Shown piece by piece: positions 2,712 to 10,579 of a stretch of 13,053 nt of DNA. The stretch's first letter is position 1, and the number at the start of each line of letters is the position of its first letter. The position numbers and the translations under genes are program-made. The DNA is from Acidimicrobiales bacterium (lineage in GTDB: Bacteria > Actinomycetota > Acidimicrobiia > Acidimicrobiales > Poriferisodaliceae): the NCBI GenBank assembly GCA_020631315.1, contig JAHDHM010000047.1, positions 1,723 through 14,775 of the forward strand. The letters run 5' to 3'. Under the pieces are notes generated by a model, which was given only the letters and a program-made list of their open reading frames with translations, did not search any database and was not told where the DNA came from.

Positions 2712-3722
2712 ATGGCCGTTGTCACCCCCGGATCGAACACCGCCACGGCGAACGCCGACTTCAGTGAGCTCGAGGCGCTGGCGGCATCGACCTCGCCGCT
2801 GACACTCGCCGCCGAACAGGTACTCCCCGTCGACGCGGCGGCATCGGCCTTGTTGCCGAACGGCCTGTTGCGTCGGGGGATGGCGATCACGATCGGCGGT
2901 CGTGCTCGGCGTTCGTTGGCCTTGGCACTCGTCGCCGAGGCGAGCGCGACCGGTTCGTGGGTGGCCCTCGTGGGTGTGCGGGGCATGGGTCTCGCCGCGG
3001 TGGAGGAGTACGGCCTGTCGCTCGAGCGTGTGGCCGTCATCGAGGACCCCGGCACCGAATGGGGAGCCGTCGTCGCGGCGTTGATCGGGTCGGTCGACAT
3101 CGTCATCACCTCGACCCCCGAACGTGTCTCGAGCCGCGACGGTCGTCGGTTGGCGGCCCGTCTGCGCGAGCGTGGCAGCGTCGTGATCGAGATGCGCTCA
3201 CGTGCCGATGCCGTCCTCCAAGGCGATGTCACGCTCCAGGCCGACACCGGTTCGTGGCAGGGGCTGCACCGAGGGCACGGCCGCCTGGAGCGCCGAAAGG
3301 TCGTCGTGCACACCGGTGGTCGTGGTGCCGCGGCACGTGGTGGTCGTGTCGAGATGTGGTTGCCGTCGTCGTCGGGTCGCGCCGAGGTGATCGAGGCCTC
3401 GAGCGGTGGTGTCTCCGACGGCGGTGTCGTCACCTACGACACGGTGGCCGACGTCGCCGATCTGACGGCACGACTCAAGGCTCGTGTCGAGGCACGTGCC
3501 GCATCCGGCGATCGTGACCACCCGGACGATGGTGGTCACGACCCCACACTGGCCACTGGTCGCCGCCGGAGTCGATGCGACACAGCCGGCGGCGGTGATC
3601 GTGGCGAACCGTGTCGTCGAGGTCACTCCGGCGGCCCGTCAGCACGGTGTCGACATCGGCATGCGCCGGAGGGAGTCGCAGGGGCGCTGTCCCTCGCTCG
3701 AGGTGATCGATCACGACCCTGA
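2712..3722 (+). CDS. imuA: ImuA' (RecA-like mutasome accessory protein)
   Basis: This is a RecA-fold partner of ImuB in damage-induced mutagenesis. The core GMAITIGGRARRSLALALVAEASATGSWVALVG (about 56-88) is the actinobacterial ImuA' signature. The Walker A position reads GGRARRSL (62-69) and lacks the GKT/S of an active ATP site, as expected for ImuA'. It continues with LGLAAVEEYG-like and RLAARLRERGSVVIEMR blocks. ATG 2712 is 6 nt downstream of the -10 hexamer and the LexA box. The frame stays open to the TGA at 3720-3722, 209 nt inside imuB. Residues up to about 267 look genuine; the last 69, within the overlap, are Arg/Gly-rich and look like an out-of-frame reading of imuB. A TGA in another frame at 3515-3517 overlaps the imuB GTG and may be where the ancestral gene ended. 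Confidence 0.88.
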   Translation: MAVVTPGSNTATANADFSELEALAASTSPLTLAAEQVLPVDAAASALLPNGLLRRGMAITIGGRARRSLALALVAEASATGSWVALVGVRGMGLAAVEEYGLSLERVAVIEDPGTEWGAVVAALIGSVDIVITSTPERVSSRDGRRLAARLRERGSVVIEMRSRADAVLQGDVTLQADTGSWQGLHRGHGRLERRKVVVHTGGRGAAARGGRVEMWLPSSSGRAEVIEASSGGVSDGGVVTYDTVADVADLTARLKARVEARAASGDRDHPDDGGHDPTLATGRRRSRCDTAGGGDRGEPCRRGHSGGPSARCRHRHAPEGVAGALSLARGDRSRP

Positions 3723-5136
3723 TCTCGATGCGCGCCGATTCGAGCCCGTGGTCGCCGCGCTGGAGACCTTCACCCCCAGGGTGGAACTGCTCGGTCCCGG
3801 GCGCTGTTCGTTCCCGACTCGCGGGCCGTCTCGCTACTTCGGCGGCGACGAGTCGCTGGCGACCTCGGTCGTGATGGCCGTCGACGCCGAGCTCGCACAC
3901 GTCCTCGGGCGTGACGACGTGCCTTTCGGCTACAGCGCCAGGGTCGGTGTCGCGGACGGGCTCTTCGGCGCGTCGTTGGCCGCGGAGTTGGCGGTGGCGG
4001 CTCGGACCGTCGAGCAACGCATCCAGGTCGTTCCCGTCGACGGCTCCGCTCGTTTCCTCGCTCCGGTGTCGGTCGCCGCATTGAAGGGATGGTCGGCGCC
4101 TCTGGCCGACGGCGAGCAGCTCGTCGACGTGTTGTGGCGGCTGGGCCTGACGACGCTCGGTTCCGTCGCCGCGACCCCCGAGGCAGATCTGTTGGCTCGG
4201 TTCGGCAACGACGGTGCTCGAGCGCACCGGCTGGCCGCCGGACTCGACGACCGACCTCCCGACACCCGTCCGGTGCCGCCCGAGTCGCATGTCGAGGCCG
4301 AGCTCGACCCGCCGGCTGCGCGAGTCGACGCAGCGAGCTTCGTCGCGAAGACCCTGGCCGACCAGCTCCATGCCCGGTTGTCGGCCGATGGTCTGGCGTG
4401 CACGCGCATCGTGGTCGAGGTGGTGACCGAATCGGGTGAGACGCGCTCTCGGGTCTGGCGGCACGAAGGCACACTGTCGGCAGTCGACGTCGCCGATCGT
4501 GTGCGCTGGCAGCTCGACGGCTGGTTGAGTTCCTCACGTCGGCCGACGTCGGCCATCTCGGTGTTGCGGCTCATCCCCGACGAGGTCGTCGCCGATTCCG
4601 GCCGACAGCTGGGGTTCTGGGGAGGGCAGCGAGCCGAGAGCGAGCGAGCGGTGAGGGCCCTGGCCAGGGTGCAGGGCATGCTCGGGCCGGACTCGGTCGG
4701 AGTTCCCGAACGTCGTGGCGGTCGTGGGGTGGGGGAGGTCATCGGTGTCGTCCCGCTGCCACTCGTCGATCTGTCCGACGAGGAGCGCTCCATCGATGCA
4801 CCAGCGGCCGCGGCGCCGTGGCCCGGGCGAGTGCCGGCGCCGTCCCCCACGGCGGTGTTCGACCGTGGCCGATCGGTGCAGTTGTTGGACGAGCGGGACC
4901 AGGCCGTGTCGGTGAGCGGTCGAGGCGAGGTGAGTGGTGCGCCGGCTGCGCTCGTCGACGGGGAGGGGCGCCATCGGATCGTCGGCTGGGCGGGTCCCTG
5001 GCTGCTCGACGAACGGTGGTGGGAGCCCGGGCAGCGGCGGAGGTCGGCGAGGTTCCAGATCGCCACCGACGACGGCGCAGCCCACCTGGTGTCCCTGTCG
5101 GGTGGGTGCTGGGTGATCGAGGCCAGCTACGACTGA
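3514..5136 (+). CDS. imuB: ImuB, inactive Y-family polymerase hub of the mutasome
   Basis: The product is a 540-residue Y-family-like protein that links the beta clamp, ImuA' and DnaE2 at damaged DNA. Conserved ImuB blocks are MVVTTPHWPLVAAG, VIVANRVVEVTPAARQHGVDIGMRRRESQGRCPSLEV, VELLGPGRCSFPTRGPSRYFGG and the little-finger region. The catalytic acidic residues of true Y polymerases are missing: TTPHW stands where a VDMDAF-type motif would be, and CSFPTRG where a DEAYLD-type motif would be. QLGFWG at about 365-370 corresponds to the clamp-binding motif QLPLWG known in Mycobacterium tuberculosis ImuB. I chose GTG 3514 because the family start follows directly; it forms GTGA with an out-of-frame stop. 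GTG 3484 and ATG 3529 are alternatives. It is co-transcribed with imuA' under the LexA box at 2685. Confidence 0.93.
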   Translation: MTTRTMVVTTPHWPLVAAGVDATQPAAVIVANRVVEVTPAARQHGVDIGMRRRESQGRCPSLEVIDHDPDLDARRFEPVVAALETFTPRVELLGPGRCSFPTRGPSRYFGGDESLATSVVMAVDAELAHVLGRDDVPFGYSARVGVADGLFGASLAAELAVAARTVEQRIQVVPVDGSARFLAPVSVAALKGWSAPLADGEQLVDVLWRLGLTTLGSVAATPEADLLARFGNDGARAHRLAAGLDDRPPDTRPVPPESHVEAELDPPAARVDAASFVAKTLADQLHARLSADGLACTRIVVEVVTESGETRSRVWRHEGTLSAVDVADRVRWQLDGWLSSSRRPTSAISVLRLIPDEVVADSGRQLGFWGGQRAESERAVRALARVQGMLGPDSVGVPERRGGRGVGEVIGVVPLPLVDLSDEERSIDAPAAAAPWPGRVPAPSPTAVFDRGRSVQLLDERDQAVSVSGRGEVSGAPAALVDGEGRHRIVGWAGPWLLDERWWEPGQRRRSARFQIATDDGAAHLVSLSGGCWVIEASYD

Positions 5137-8821: not shown

Positions 8822-9328
8822 CTAACTGGACAGAACGGCGAGCGCCTGCAGCGTCTCGAGGCAGGCGCGGCCGACCTCGTGGCCCTTCAGGCCCATGTGG
8901 TCGGTGAAGAAGTCCCGGTGGTCCTGGTGCTCGTGGAACTGCTGCGGCGTCAGCACGCAGGAGAAGACCGGGACGCCGGTGTCGAGCTGCACCCGCATGA
9001 GGCCGCCGATCACGGCATCGGCCACGAACTCGTGACGGTAGATGCCGCCGTCGACGACGAACCCGACCGCGACCACTGCATCGACCCGATGGGTGGCGGC
9101 GAGGCGTCGGCTGAACAACGGGAGTTCGAACGCTCCGGGCACCGTGTGGAACTCGAGCGCGGCACGGCCGGCGAGTTCGGAGGTCAGTCCGTCGCACGCG
9201 GCATGGACCATCGGTCCGTTGACCGTGGTGCGCACGACCGCCACCCGTGGGCGCGACGTTCCGTCCTCGGGGTGATCGCCGTCACCTGAGGCGGTCGACG
9301 GTGGGTGGAGCTCTGCAGTCGTTCGCAT
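8822..9328 (-). CDS. ribH: Lumazine synthase-like protein, RibH2 (type II) form
   Basis: Lumazine synthase joins a ribityl-aminouracil and a butanone phosphate in the penultimate riboflavin step. Blocks are VPGAFELPLFSRRLA, VAVGFVVDGGIYRHEFVADAV (with the catalytic-type His), GLMRVQLDTGVPVFSCVLTPQQFHEH, DFFTDHMGLKGHEVGRACL (with the conserved Lys). GGIYRH, VLTP.FHE and the DFF…KG block are the type II, Brucella RibH2-like pattern, not the housekeeping RibH. The aromatic residue that normally stacks on the pyrimidine (Trp in RibH2 RWHADIV, Phe in RibH) is replaced: the segment reads VRTTVNGPMV. Activity may therefore be altered. I chose the ATG at 9328-9326 (168 aa) because the ATG 12 nt upstream (9340) lies within the -10 hexamer TATGTT. 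No other riboflavin gene is nearby. Confidence 0.85.
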   Translation of the reverse strand: MRTTAELHPPSTASGDGDHPEDGTSRPRVAVVRTTVNGPMVHAACDGLTSELAGRAALEFHTVPGAFELPLFSRRLAATHRVDAVVAVGFVVDGGIYRHEFVADAVIGGLMRVQLDTGVPVFSCVLTPQQFHEHQDHRDFFTDHMGLKGHEVGRACLETLQALAVLSS

Positions 9329-9335
9329 GAGCCGA

Positions 9336-9366
9336 AACATAGAAGTTGAAGTGAACTTCAGATCAA
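9336..9366 (-). promoter_or_regulatory. ribH promoter with 19-bp spacer (MerR/SoxR-activated type)
   Basis: Read on the minus strand: -35 TTGATC (9366-9361), a spacer of exactly 19 bp (9360-9342), -10 TATGTT (9341-9336), then 7 nt to ATG 9328. A 19-bp spacer is over-long for free polymerase and is the hallmark of promoters that MerR-family activators untwist. The SoxR-like palindrome begins at the first spacer base, as in E. coli soxS. Confidence 0.65.
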
Positions 9367-9375
9367 GAGCACAAT
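9346..9375 (+). promoter_or_regulatory. Divergent promoter of the membrane protein-soxR operon
   Basis: TTGAAG (9346-9351), an 18-bp spacer and CACAAT (9370-9375), followed by 6 nt and ATG 9382: a leaderless-type arrangement. The SoxR-like palindrome overlaps its -35, so SoxR binding could also repress or tune its own operon. Confidence 0.55.
9347..9360. promoter_or_regulatory. SoxR-box-like operator
   Basis: TGAAGT-GA-ACTTCA is a perfect 6-bp inverted repeat with a 2-base centre, in the 53-bp gap between divergent ribH and the soxR operon. Its core AAGT-NN-ACTT equals the core of the E. coli soxS SoxR box as I recall it (TCAAGTTAACTTGA); only the flanking C/G pair and the centre differ. With soxR two genes away, SoxR is the obvious candidate ligand. 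Confidence 0.7.
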
Positions 9376-9381
9376 CGTGCG

Positions 9382-10065
9382 ATGTCCTCGTCGATCGATG
9401 CCGATCCGAGCCGTCGCGTGCTGTGGTCGCTGGCGGTGTTCGTCGCCGGCTACAGCATCTGGCACCACAACGGTCTCTTCTTCGGCTGGGCTGGTGAGGT
9501 CGGTCCGCTCGATGGCGCCGACGTCGCTGACACGGTGACCCCGGTCGTCGTGATCGGTCCGTTGGTGGTGGCTGCTTCGGCGTTGGCGCTGTCGGGTCGC
9601 AAGTGGGTCGTGTTCGGTCTCGGGGTTGCCGGCCTCGGGCACGGTGCGCATCTGTCGTCGAACGCGATCTCGAATCGGATCGCCGACGTCGGTTCCGATG
9701 CCACTTCGGTCGAGATCGTCGATCACGTTCATCTGTGGGACGAGGTGTTGGGTCACTGGTGGTGGTTCGGTGGGCTGCTCGTCTGCATCGTCGTGTTGGT
9801 GGTCGCTGCTGCGCAGGTGGAGCTGGGTCTCGCGTCGTGGGTGCTGGCGGTGTTCGGCGGACTGGTCGGGTTGACCTGGGCGACGAACAGCCTCGAAGGC
9901 GGCACCGCTCTCCTCGGGCTCGCCGGTGGCGTCGCTGCGGTCGTGGCGGCCGTACGCGGTCACCCGTGGCGTTGGGCGCTCGCTGGTCTGGGTGTCGTGG
10001 CCTGCGGTGTCATCGGCGGTTGGGGTGTTCTCCACAGCGGCTTTCCGCAGCCGTCGAGTCTGTGA
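9382..10065 (+). CDS. His-rich integral membrane protein, function unknown, coupled to soxR
   Basis: The product is 227 residues. Hydrophobic segments lie at about 12-29, 52-70, 74-92, 125-145, 150-168, 174-191 and 197-217, giving about seven helices. A cluster of polar residues near membrane ends stands out: H28-H29, GHGAH (H87, H90), N94, N98, and DHVHLWDEVLGH (H115, H117, D120, E121, H125). This could ligate a metal or heme, as in some membrane oxidoreductases or membrane hydrolases; that is inference and no family is recognised. ATG 9382 is 6 nt after a -10 hexamer. Its TGA (10063-10065) shares a base with the soxR ATG, so the two are translationally coupled, which suggests a redox-linked role. 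Confidence 0.82.
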   Translation: MSSSIDADPSRRVLWSLAVFVAGYSIWHHNGLFFGWAGEVGPLDGADVADTVTPVVVIGPLVVAASALALSGRKWVVFGLGVAGLGHGAHLSSNAISNRIADVGSDATSVEIVDHVHLWDEVLGHWWWFGGLLVCIVVLVVAAAQVELGLASWVLAVFGGLVGLTWATNSLEGGTALLGLAGGVAAVVAAVRGHPWRWALAGLGVVACGVIGGWGVLHSGFPQPSSL

Positions 10066-10526
10066 TGCAGCCGTTCCTGACGATCGGGCAGGCGGCGGAG
10101 CGTCTGGGGGTGGCGACCTCCGCACTGCGCTTCTACGAGCAGCGAGGGCTGATCACGAGCCGCCGAACGTCTGGAGGGCAACGCCGATTCGCCCGCGACG
10201 TGCTGCGGAGGGTGTCGTTCATCCGGGCCGCTCAGGAAGTCGGCGTGTCGCTCGACGAGATCGCCGAGCGTCTCGCGGTGCTGCCACCGGAGCGGGCGCC
10301 GACCACCGAGGAGTGGGAGCGGCTTGCGGCCGATTGGCGCCCCCGGCTCGACGAGCGCATCGCCACGCTGCAGGGCATCCGGGATCGGCTCGCATCCTGT
10401 ATCGGGTGTGGCTGCCAGAGCCTCGACAGCTGCGCTGTGTTCAATCCCGACGACCAGGCGGCCTCGGGTGGCCCGGGTGCTCGTTTCCTCGCGATGCCAT
10501 CGCCCGTTGACGAGTCCTCGAACTGA
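10065..10526 (+). CDS. soxR: Redox-sensing transcriptional activator SoxR (MerR family)
   Basis: The product is a 153-residue cytosolic dimeric regulator carrying a [2Fe-2S] cluster, oxidised by redox-cycling compounds and then activating promoters by DNA distortion. The N-terminal MerR helix-turn-helix TIGQAAERLGVATSALRFYEQRGLI (6-30) and SGGQRRFARDVLRRVSFI match SoxR closely. The dimer helix follows, then the cluster motif CIGCGCQSLDSC with C112, C115, C117 and C123: exactly the E. coli SoxR spacing (CxxCxCx5C). The short C-terminal tail lacks extra domains. ATG 10065 overlaps the stop of the membrane gene by one base. The TGA at 10524-10526 is 2 nt before a LexA box that belongs to dnaE2. 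The gene is probably autoregulated through the operator at 9347. Confidence 0.95.
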   Translation: MQPFLTIGQAAERLGVATSALRFYEQRGLITSRRTSGGQRRFARDVLRRVSFIRAAQEVGVSLDEIAERLAVLPPERAPTTEEWERLAADWRPRLDERIATLQGIRDRLASCIGCGCQSLDSCAVFNPDDQAASGGPGARFLAMPSPVDESSN

Positions 10527-10550: not shown

Positions 10551-10579
10551 TTGACAACATCGAACGGACGTTCGATGCT
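10551..10579 (+). promoter_or_regulatory. dnaE2 promoter
   Basis: Consensus -35 TTGACA (10551-10556), a 17-bp spacer, and -10 GATGCT (10574-10579), then 6 nt to ATG 10586: a leaderless-type promoter. LexA box 2 fills most of the spacer, so repression by direct occlusion is expected. Confidence 0.75.
10561..10574 (+). promoter_or_regulatory. LexA (SOS) box 2 of dnaE2
   Basis: CGAACGGACGTTCG is a second perfect CGAAC-N4-GTTCG operator, located between the -35 and -10 of the dnaE2 promoter and touching the first base of the -10. Confidence 0.9.

What the first reader, a model, noticed from the sequence alone, without database searches (positions are those of the whole stretch)
9326..9382. Predicted SoxR control of a RibH2-type lumazine synthase through a soxS-like promoter
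The 53-bp gap between ribH (minus) and the soxR operon (plus) holds the palindrome TGAAGT-GA-ACTTCA. On the ribH side it lies in a spacer of exactly 19 bp between TTGATC and TATGTT, beginning at the first spacer base. As I recall the E. coli soxS promoter (TTTACC, 19-bp spacer opening with TCAAGTTAACTTGA, TATACT), position, spacing and core AAGT-NN-ACTT all coincide. SoxR is encoded in the divergent operon. Known SoxR targets are soxS or genes handling redox-active metabolites; control of a flavin-pathway-like protein would be new to me. Sequence and geometry are seen; regulation is inferred.
Basis: partly seen in the sequence, partly recalled or inferred. Interest (0 to 1): 0.8.

Follow-up and report, generated by a model that had tools for sequence, protein, structure and literature searches.

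The report
Redox sensor SoxR controlling riboflavin genes
A conserved DNA switch of the kind used by the redox sensor SoxR sits in front of a vitamin B2 gene here, and in related bacteria the same switch precedes this or other vitamin B2 genes, suggesting that these bacteria adjust flavin production to redox stress.

Summary
The minus strand reads TTGATC, a 19-bp spacer opening with TGAAGT-TC-ACTTCA, then TATGTT; the ribH2 ATG (9328) follows 7 nt later. A box model trained on 69 boxes before other genes scores it 35.0 bits (E. coli soxS 35.5; nothing above 8 bits in 507 kb of background, both strands). In relatives, 12 further ribH2 genes carry the box at the same spacing, nine of them divergent to soxR. 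The window SoxR falls in a clade of 16 (SH-aLRT 99). The other 15 genomes of that clade each have a box at ribH2, ribD, ribE or ribBA, including three without ribH2 (two of those boxes weak). Thirteen RibH2 genomes in which this SoxR type was not found lack the box. FMN riboswitches precede ribH2 in 11 of 11 Pseudomonadota loci tested, in none of the boxed loci. Best reading: direct SoxR activation of riboflavin genes by a dedicated SoxR subclade. Binding and induction are untested. A twist: this window's RibH2 has Val-Asn where most have Trp-His, so it may not be an active lumazine synthase.

The parts
9361..9366 (-). -35 hexamer TTGATC of the ribH2 promoter (relatives: TTGACT)
9342..9360 (-). 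19-bp spacer TGAAGTTCACTTCAACTTC, MerR/SoxR-type operator
9347..9360 (.). dyad TGAAGT-GA-ACTTCA (plus strand), core of the SoxR-type box
9336..9341 (-). -10 hexamer TATGTT
   Evidence: TANNNT in the 12 boxed relatives
8822..9328 (-). ribH2: type-II (RibH2-like) lumazine synthase family protein, 168 aa, ATG 7 nt after the -10; Val36-Asn37 in place of the usual Trp-His
9382..10065 (+). orf227: unnamed multi-helix (probably membrane) protein between the box and soxR; its family was found in 1 of 80 SoxR-containing genomes
10065..10526 (+). soxR, with CIGCGCQSLDSC cluster-binding motif, member of the riboflavin-linked SoxR clade (SoxR-A)
9346..9375 (+). possible promoter of orf227-soxR overlapping the operator (TTGAAG, 18 nt, CACAAT, then 6 nt to ATG); weak, read by eye
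   Evidence: not found by the scan

Best explanation
The site is a SoxR operator inside the ribH2 promoter. SoxR bound to the dyad would hold the over-long 19-bp spacer in an inactive form; oxidation of its [2Fe-2S] cluster by redox-cycling compounds would realign -35 and -10 and switch ribH2 on, with the transcript starting at or near the ATG. The SoxR in this window belongs to a subclade (SoxR-A) whose shared targets in relatives are riboflavin genes: ribH2 in most, the ribD, ribE or ribBA promoters in others. The likely purpose is extra flavin supply for the flavoenzymes that clear redox-active compounds. Shown: the site, its conservation, its company. Inferred: binding, activation, inducer, purpose.
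For: A box model from 69 boxes upstream of genes other than riboflavin genes scores the window site 35.0 (training range 31.0-49.7), with 0 hits above 8 bits in 80 background loci (507 kb, both strands). ribH2 box in 12 of 25 RibH2-containing genomes, all 12 with a SoxR-A gene; 0 of the 13 in which no SoxR-A was found (Fisher 1.9e-7, but see against). SoxR-A is one clade, SH-aLRT 99. 15 of 15 SoxR-A genomes have a box at one or more riboflavin genes: ribH2 in 12; ribD (G400, G401), ribE (G425, G467, G424, G427), ribBA (G467). ribE loci of 29 genomes with other SoxRs only: best score 10.6, no box (40 of 90 such genomes searched, 11 without a ribE match). Strict box search of 12 RibH2 genomes: 7 matches (6 distinct places) in 5 genomes, all at ribH2 or ribD; 0 for the reversed control. 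Order-wide box search: 78 of 397 genomes match; I see one match of the reversed control, in G490. Boxes of this type lie next to soxR: 39 of 111 ORFs on the far side of a box match SoxR.
Against: No binding, footprint or expression data. On the RibH2 tree the boxed genes form one side of a weakly supported branch (72/92) and only one independent pair exists, so the RibH2 counts amount to one evolutionary event, not 25 tests; the separate support comes from boxes at ribD, ribE and ribBA. The window dyad carries G/C swaps in both halves against the consensus (TGAAGT..ACTTCA for TCAAGT..ACTTGA). Boxes at ribE lie 43 to about 81 nt from the start codon instead of 6-8, and those of G424 (30.6) and G427 (26.7) score below the training range (31.0-49.7). 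9 of 15 SoxR-A genomes have no box in the ribE locus held (up to 1.5 kb each side). The SoxR searches scored only the first 9 candidates per genome, so absence of SoxR-A is not proven genome by genome.
Confidence: 0.8

Rival explanations
1. The box mainly serves soxR autoregulation (divergent promoter), and ribH2 is a passive neighbour.
For: The operator overlaps any orf227-soxR promoter; in several relatives a possible soxR start codon directly follows the box. In the window the divergent operon is orf227-soxR.
Against: The 19-bp-spaced -35/-10 and an ATG 6-8 nt downstream point toward ribH2 in 13 of 13 boxed loci, window included; in G400, G402 and G425 the box stays at ribH2 although the SoxR-A gene lies on another contig; other riboflavin promoters carry it too.
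Confidence: 0.08
2. The box is bound by another MerR-family protein, not SoxR.
For: MerR-family operators are alike (recalled), and the SoxR searches brought up other MerR-like genes.
Against: soxR or its operon divergent from boxed ribH2 at 10 loci, window included; 39 of 111 opposite ORFs at boxes of this type match SoxR; among the genomes compared, riboflavin boxes were found only where SoxR-A is present.
Confidence: 0.07
3. The window RibH2 is no longer a lumazine synthase but a SoxR-induced lumazine- or flavin-binding protein.
For: Val36-Asn37 replace Trp-His, Trp being present in 42 of 48 aligned rows (2 of the 48 have a gap there); its two closest relatives have Ile-His, so the Trp loss is shared by the lineage; Brucella RibH2 W22A is reported to lack activity but keep its structure (PMC2828483, passages, citing unpublished results).
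Against: His99, Arg98 and Lys148 are kept, and other changes could compensate. Assignment of W22 to this column rests on it being the only Trp in the stretch of the Brucella protein printed.
Confidence: 0.3
4. Chance palindrome in an AT-richer intergenic gap.
For: Short dyads are common.
Against: The best of 40 dinucleotide shuffles of the window scores 1.8 bits against 35.0; conserved at 12 further ribH2 genes.
Confidence: 0.01

Closest known systems
E. coli soxR-soxS divergent promoter
   Same: soxR divergent from its target; 19-bp spacer; dyad with core AAGT-NN-ACTT starting at the first spacer base (31-mer verified)
   Different: Target is a type-II lumazine synthase family gene instead of soxS; half-sites differ (TGAAGT for TCAAGT); the window has orf227 between the box and soxR
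E. coli SoxRS regulon member ribA (Koh et al. 1996, not held; seen only as cited in passages of PMC6092379)
   Same: A riboflavin gene raised under redox-cycling stress
   Different: There control is reported for the soxRS locus (through SoxS, as I recall); here a SoxR-type box lies directly in riboflavin promoters
Streptomyces coelicolor SoxR regulon (PMC4146615, passages and the Discussion section)
   Same: Actinobacterial SoxR acting directly on target genes with boxes in their promoters; redox enzymes and a transporter
   Different: Six genes, none of riboflavin synthesis
Stand-alone ribH2 of Rhizobiales and Brucella under an FMN riboswitch (PMC2828483, passages)
   Same: Second, separately controlled type-II lumazine synthase gene
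   Different: There an RFN element (found here in 11 of 11 Pseudomonadota loci tested); here none in the window or the 12 boxed RibH2 loci and a SoxR-type box in its place

Membership tests
SoxR | Score above the TIGR01950 cut-off | tested here: met
   201.7 bits, cut-off 116.9
SoxR | Four-cysteine [2Fe-2S] motif CxGCxCxxxxxC | tested here: met
   CIGCGCQSLDSC
SoxR | Redox-dependent activation | not testable with these tools
   needs purified protein or a reporter strain
soxS-like SoxR promoter | 19-bp spacer between -35 and -10 | tested here: met
soxS-like SoxR promoter | Dyad with core AAGT-NN-ACTT in the spacer, scoring like other SoxR-type boxes | tested here: met
   35.0 bits; training range 31.0-49.7; background none above 8
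soxS-like SoxR promoter | Full consensus half-sites (CTTCAAGT..ACTTGAAG) | tested here: inconclusive
   Core kept, outer bases deviate, with G/C swaps in both halves
soxS-like SoxR promoter | Conservation beside the same gene in relatives | tested here: met
   12 further ribH2 loci of 25 RibH2 genomes
soxS-like SoxR promoter | SoxR binding and soxR-dependent induction | not testable with these tools
RibH2 (type-II lumazine synthase) | Score above the NF009084 cut-off | tested here: met
   177.3 bits, cut-off 160
RibH2 (type-II lumazine synthase) | Active-site Trp (W22 of the Brucella enzyme) | tested here: not met
   Val36 (and Asn37 for the next His); Trp in 42 of 48 rows. It belongs to the sequence family; I do not file it as an active lumazine synthase
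RibH2 under FMN riboswitch | RF00050 upstream of ribH2 | tested here: not met
   0 Rfam hits in the window; positive control 11 of 11 Pseudomonadota loci

The most novel reading that the evidence does not exclude
One SoxR subclade has become a dedicated switch of riboflavin biosynthesis: in this lineage the feedback control of ribH2 by flavin level (FMN riboswitch) has been replaced by control through redox state, and boxes were gained separately at ribH2, ribD, ribE and ribBA. In the window's own lineage the switched RibH2 has lost its active-site Trp and may serve as a flavin- or lumazine-binding protein instead of an enzyme.
Probability: 0.5. Interest if true: 0.75.

Novelty: new variant of a known kind. 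Interest (0 to 1): 0.62.

Why it matters
SoxR targets are known as soxS in enterics and as efflux pumps and redox enzymes elsewhere. A SoxR clade whose shared targets are riboflavin genes would make flavin production a first-line response to redox-active compounds, and would show the regulation of a vitamin pathway being rewired from metabolite feedback to a redox sensor. It also suggests a role for the stand-alone RibH2 outside the Rhizobiales. A promoter-fusion experiment tests it.

Tried and rejected
Tried without gain: a scan of the window's own genome (none held). As the scan was cut off, it does not speak for RibH2 at large; it served as background and as riboswitch control. orf227 was tested as a part of the module and dropped: its family is found in 1 of 80 SoxR-containing genomes, it has no Pfam or NCBIfam match and no PDB fold match at E<=0.001. 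'SoxR replaced the riboswitch throughout the pathway' was weakened: FMN riboswitches are rare in the family (3 of 39 genomes, G413, G421, G422; the SoxR-A genomes of that family have none, the SoxR content of those three was not tested). The replacement statement is made only for ribH2 against Pseudomonadota; 5 actinobacterial RibH2 loci (L005, L008, L010, L017, L018) have neither riboswitch nor box.

First-pass errors corrected: I first took L115 (G425) as without a box, and one search scored L115 and L253 as without, because tblastn extended upstream of the start codon; some searches found both boxes. One search failed through a script error and was rerun. The motif scan was a first look only.

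Selections and rows left out: the two G402 matches (C548, C673) are overlapping contig ends and count once. The SoxR tree (quick method) holds 65 SoxR rows from loci at hand, E. coli and the window, not every SoxR match; the SoxR-A group was named by identity before the tree. A partial SoxR (L166) stayed in it; the partial SoxR of G393 (55%) was not placed, and the SoxRs of G495 and G411 (53%, 50%) were judged by identity only. Of the 40 genomes, those not in the tree were taken as not SoxR-A by identity (62% or less). The Rfam controls are 16 of the 80 loci, picked by me (11 Pseudomonadota, 5 Actinomycetota).

Literature searches for direct SoxR control of riboflavin genes: 25 of 69 listed; 15 of 102 listed; none; listings only, plus passages of PMC13028884 and PMC6092379. 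Nothing on point was seen. Labels such as questin oxidase, FMN reductase or transketolase for other box targets are by eye from memory, not from a search; ribBA of G467 is named from its ORF by eye.

Full report
What is there. On the minus strand the gap between ribH2 and orf227-soxR reads TTGATC (9366-9361), a 19-nt spacer TGAAGTTCACTTCAACTTC (9360-9342), TATGTT (9341-9336), seven bases, and the ATG of ribH2 at 9328.

More than chance. From boxes found in relatives I built a weight matrix using only the 69 boxes that precede genes other than riboflavin genes and have a start codon within 10 nt of the -10 hexamer. It scores the window site 35.0 bits (training 31.0-49.7), E. coli soxS 35.5, and finds nothing above 8 bits in the 80 background loci (507 kb, both strands). 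The best of 40 dinucleotide shuffles of the window scores 1.8.

Conservation. No genome is held for the window, so relatives were sampled: 395 genomes of a class, 39 of a family and 397 of an order, with overlap. RibH2 (E<=1e-24) occurs in 21 of 397 genomes of the order. With G400, G402 and G409 from the family and G393 from the class this gives 25 RibH2 genomes. Twelve have the box in front of ribH2 at 35.1-48.9 bits, 13 do not (best 8.5 bits in the locus held). In all 12, and in the window, the spacing is 19 and an ATG lies 6-8 nt after the hexamer. In nine of the 12 soxR is the immediate divergent neighbour; in G400, G402 and G425 it lies on another contig but the box remains.

A riboflavin-linked SoxR clade. 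SoxR matches (E<=1e-18) occur in 102 of 397 genomes. A tree of 67 rows puts the window SoxR with those of the 12 boxed RibH2 genomes and of G401, G424 and G427 in one clade, SH-aLRT 99; I call it SoxR-A. No SoxR-A was found in the 13 unboxed RibH2 genomes: G301, G495 and G411 have other SoxRs, G393 a partial one, G267 only a 34% match, the rest none at the thresholds used (one search scored 9 candidates per genome). The three SoxR-A genomes that lack a RibH2 match have a box at the main riboflavin genes. In full: ribD in G400 and G401, ribE in G425, G467, G424 and G427, ribBA in G467; those of G424 (30.6) and G427 (26.7) score below the training range. So 15 of 15 SoxR-A genomes have a box at one or more riboflavin genes, 6 of 15 in the ribE locus. 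In 29 genomes with other SoxRs only (40 of 90 searched, 11 of the 40 without a ribE match) no ribE locus scores above 10.6 (Fisher 7e-4). Pfam confirms RibD, RibE, RibBA and RibH1 for the examples tested (L136, L168, L231). Across 120 distinct boxes, blast of 115 downstream ORFs found riboflavin genes only in SoxR-A genomes and the window; 39 of 111 ORFs on the other side match SoxR. The order-wide box search matched 78 of 397 genomes; in its table I see one match of the reversed control, in G490.

How far the statistics carry. The 12/12 against 0/13 split (Fisher 1.9e-7) is not 25 independent tests: boxed RibH2s form one side of a branch of weak support and only one independent pair is available. 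The stronger argument is that boxes appear at different promoters of one pathway (ribH2, ribD, ribE, ribBA) in genomes of one SoxR clade, which would need several separate gains.

Riboswitch comparison. In Brucella and Rhizobiales ribH2 stands alone behind an RFN element (PMC2828483, passages). I found RF00050 upstream of ribH2 in 11 of 11 Pseudomonadota loci tested and in none of 5 actinobacterial loci, nor in the window or the 12 boxed RibH2 loci. FMN riboswitches are rare in the family in general (3 of 39 genomes; none in its SoxR-A genomes).

Mechanism. SoxR binding in a 19-bp spacer and activation by realignment is established for SoxR/MerR promoters (recalled). The geometry here is the same, so activation of ribH2 under redox-cycling stress is the best explanation, with soxR probably autoregulated through the overlapping divergent promoter (inferred). 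A flavin supply role has a precedent: E. coli ribA belongs to the SoxRS regulon (Koh et al. 1996 as cited in PMC6092379, passages). The six-gene SoxR regulon of Streptomyces coelicolor contains no riboflavin gene (PMC4146615, Discussion), and my searches listed no report of direct SoxR control of riboflavin genes.

A complication. The Trp of the WHxDIV stretch, present in 42 of 48 aligned RibH2 rows, is Val in the window and Ile in its two closest relatives; the next His is Asn in the window alone. Brucella RibH2 W22A is stated to lack activity with unaltered structure; that this is the same residue rests on it being the only Trp in the part of that protein printed. His99, Arg98 and Lys148 are kept. 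The window protein is therefore a RibH2-family member of doubtful catalytic activity, while 11 of 13 boxed RibH2s keep the Trp.

Verdict. Observation confirmed, interpretation supported and widened. A known kind of switch with a new target pathway and a dedicated SoxR subclade; experimental proof is missing.

Noticed in passing
window 9382-10065: orf227 belongs to an unnamed family (21 homologs besides itself) with conserved HHxG, GHGIHLAANSI, HLWDEVVGHY, TNxLEGGTA and FPQPS motifs; AlphaFold model pLDDT 84.9, no PDB fold match at E<=0.001; found in 1 of 80 SoxR genomes searched.
   Followed up: partly
window 10560-10575: Between soxR and a dnaE2-like polymerase gene (PHP and pol III alpha domains) lies TCGAACGGACGTTCGA, which looks like an actinobacterial LexA box (recalled); an ImuB-like Y-family polymerase gene (IMS domain) is at 3484-5136.
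   Followed up: no
L138-L247 (order-wide box sites): Many other genes of the order start 6-8 nt behind a SoxR-type box (59 of 120 boxes by the ORF rule used): by eye Rieske proteins, questin-oxidase-like proteins, transketolase-like subunits, FMN reductases, ABC exporters, SDR and VOC proteins; a SoxR regulon atlas of leaderless promoters could be made.
   Followed up: partly
L289 (G467) 1408 and 2131: Two boxes in one riboflavin operon, before ribE and before ribBA, while the same genome also has one before ribH2.
   Followed up: no
L117 (G409) RibH2: One other boxed RibH2 row has Leu at the active-site Trp column (box row with L); by the alignment alone I take it to be L117, which reads GWHAEL or similar only by eye, so the row needs checking.
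   Followed up: no
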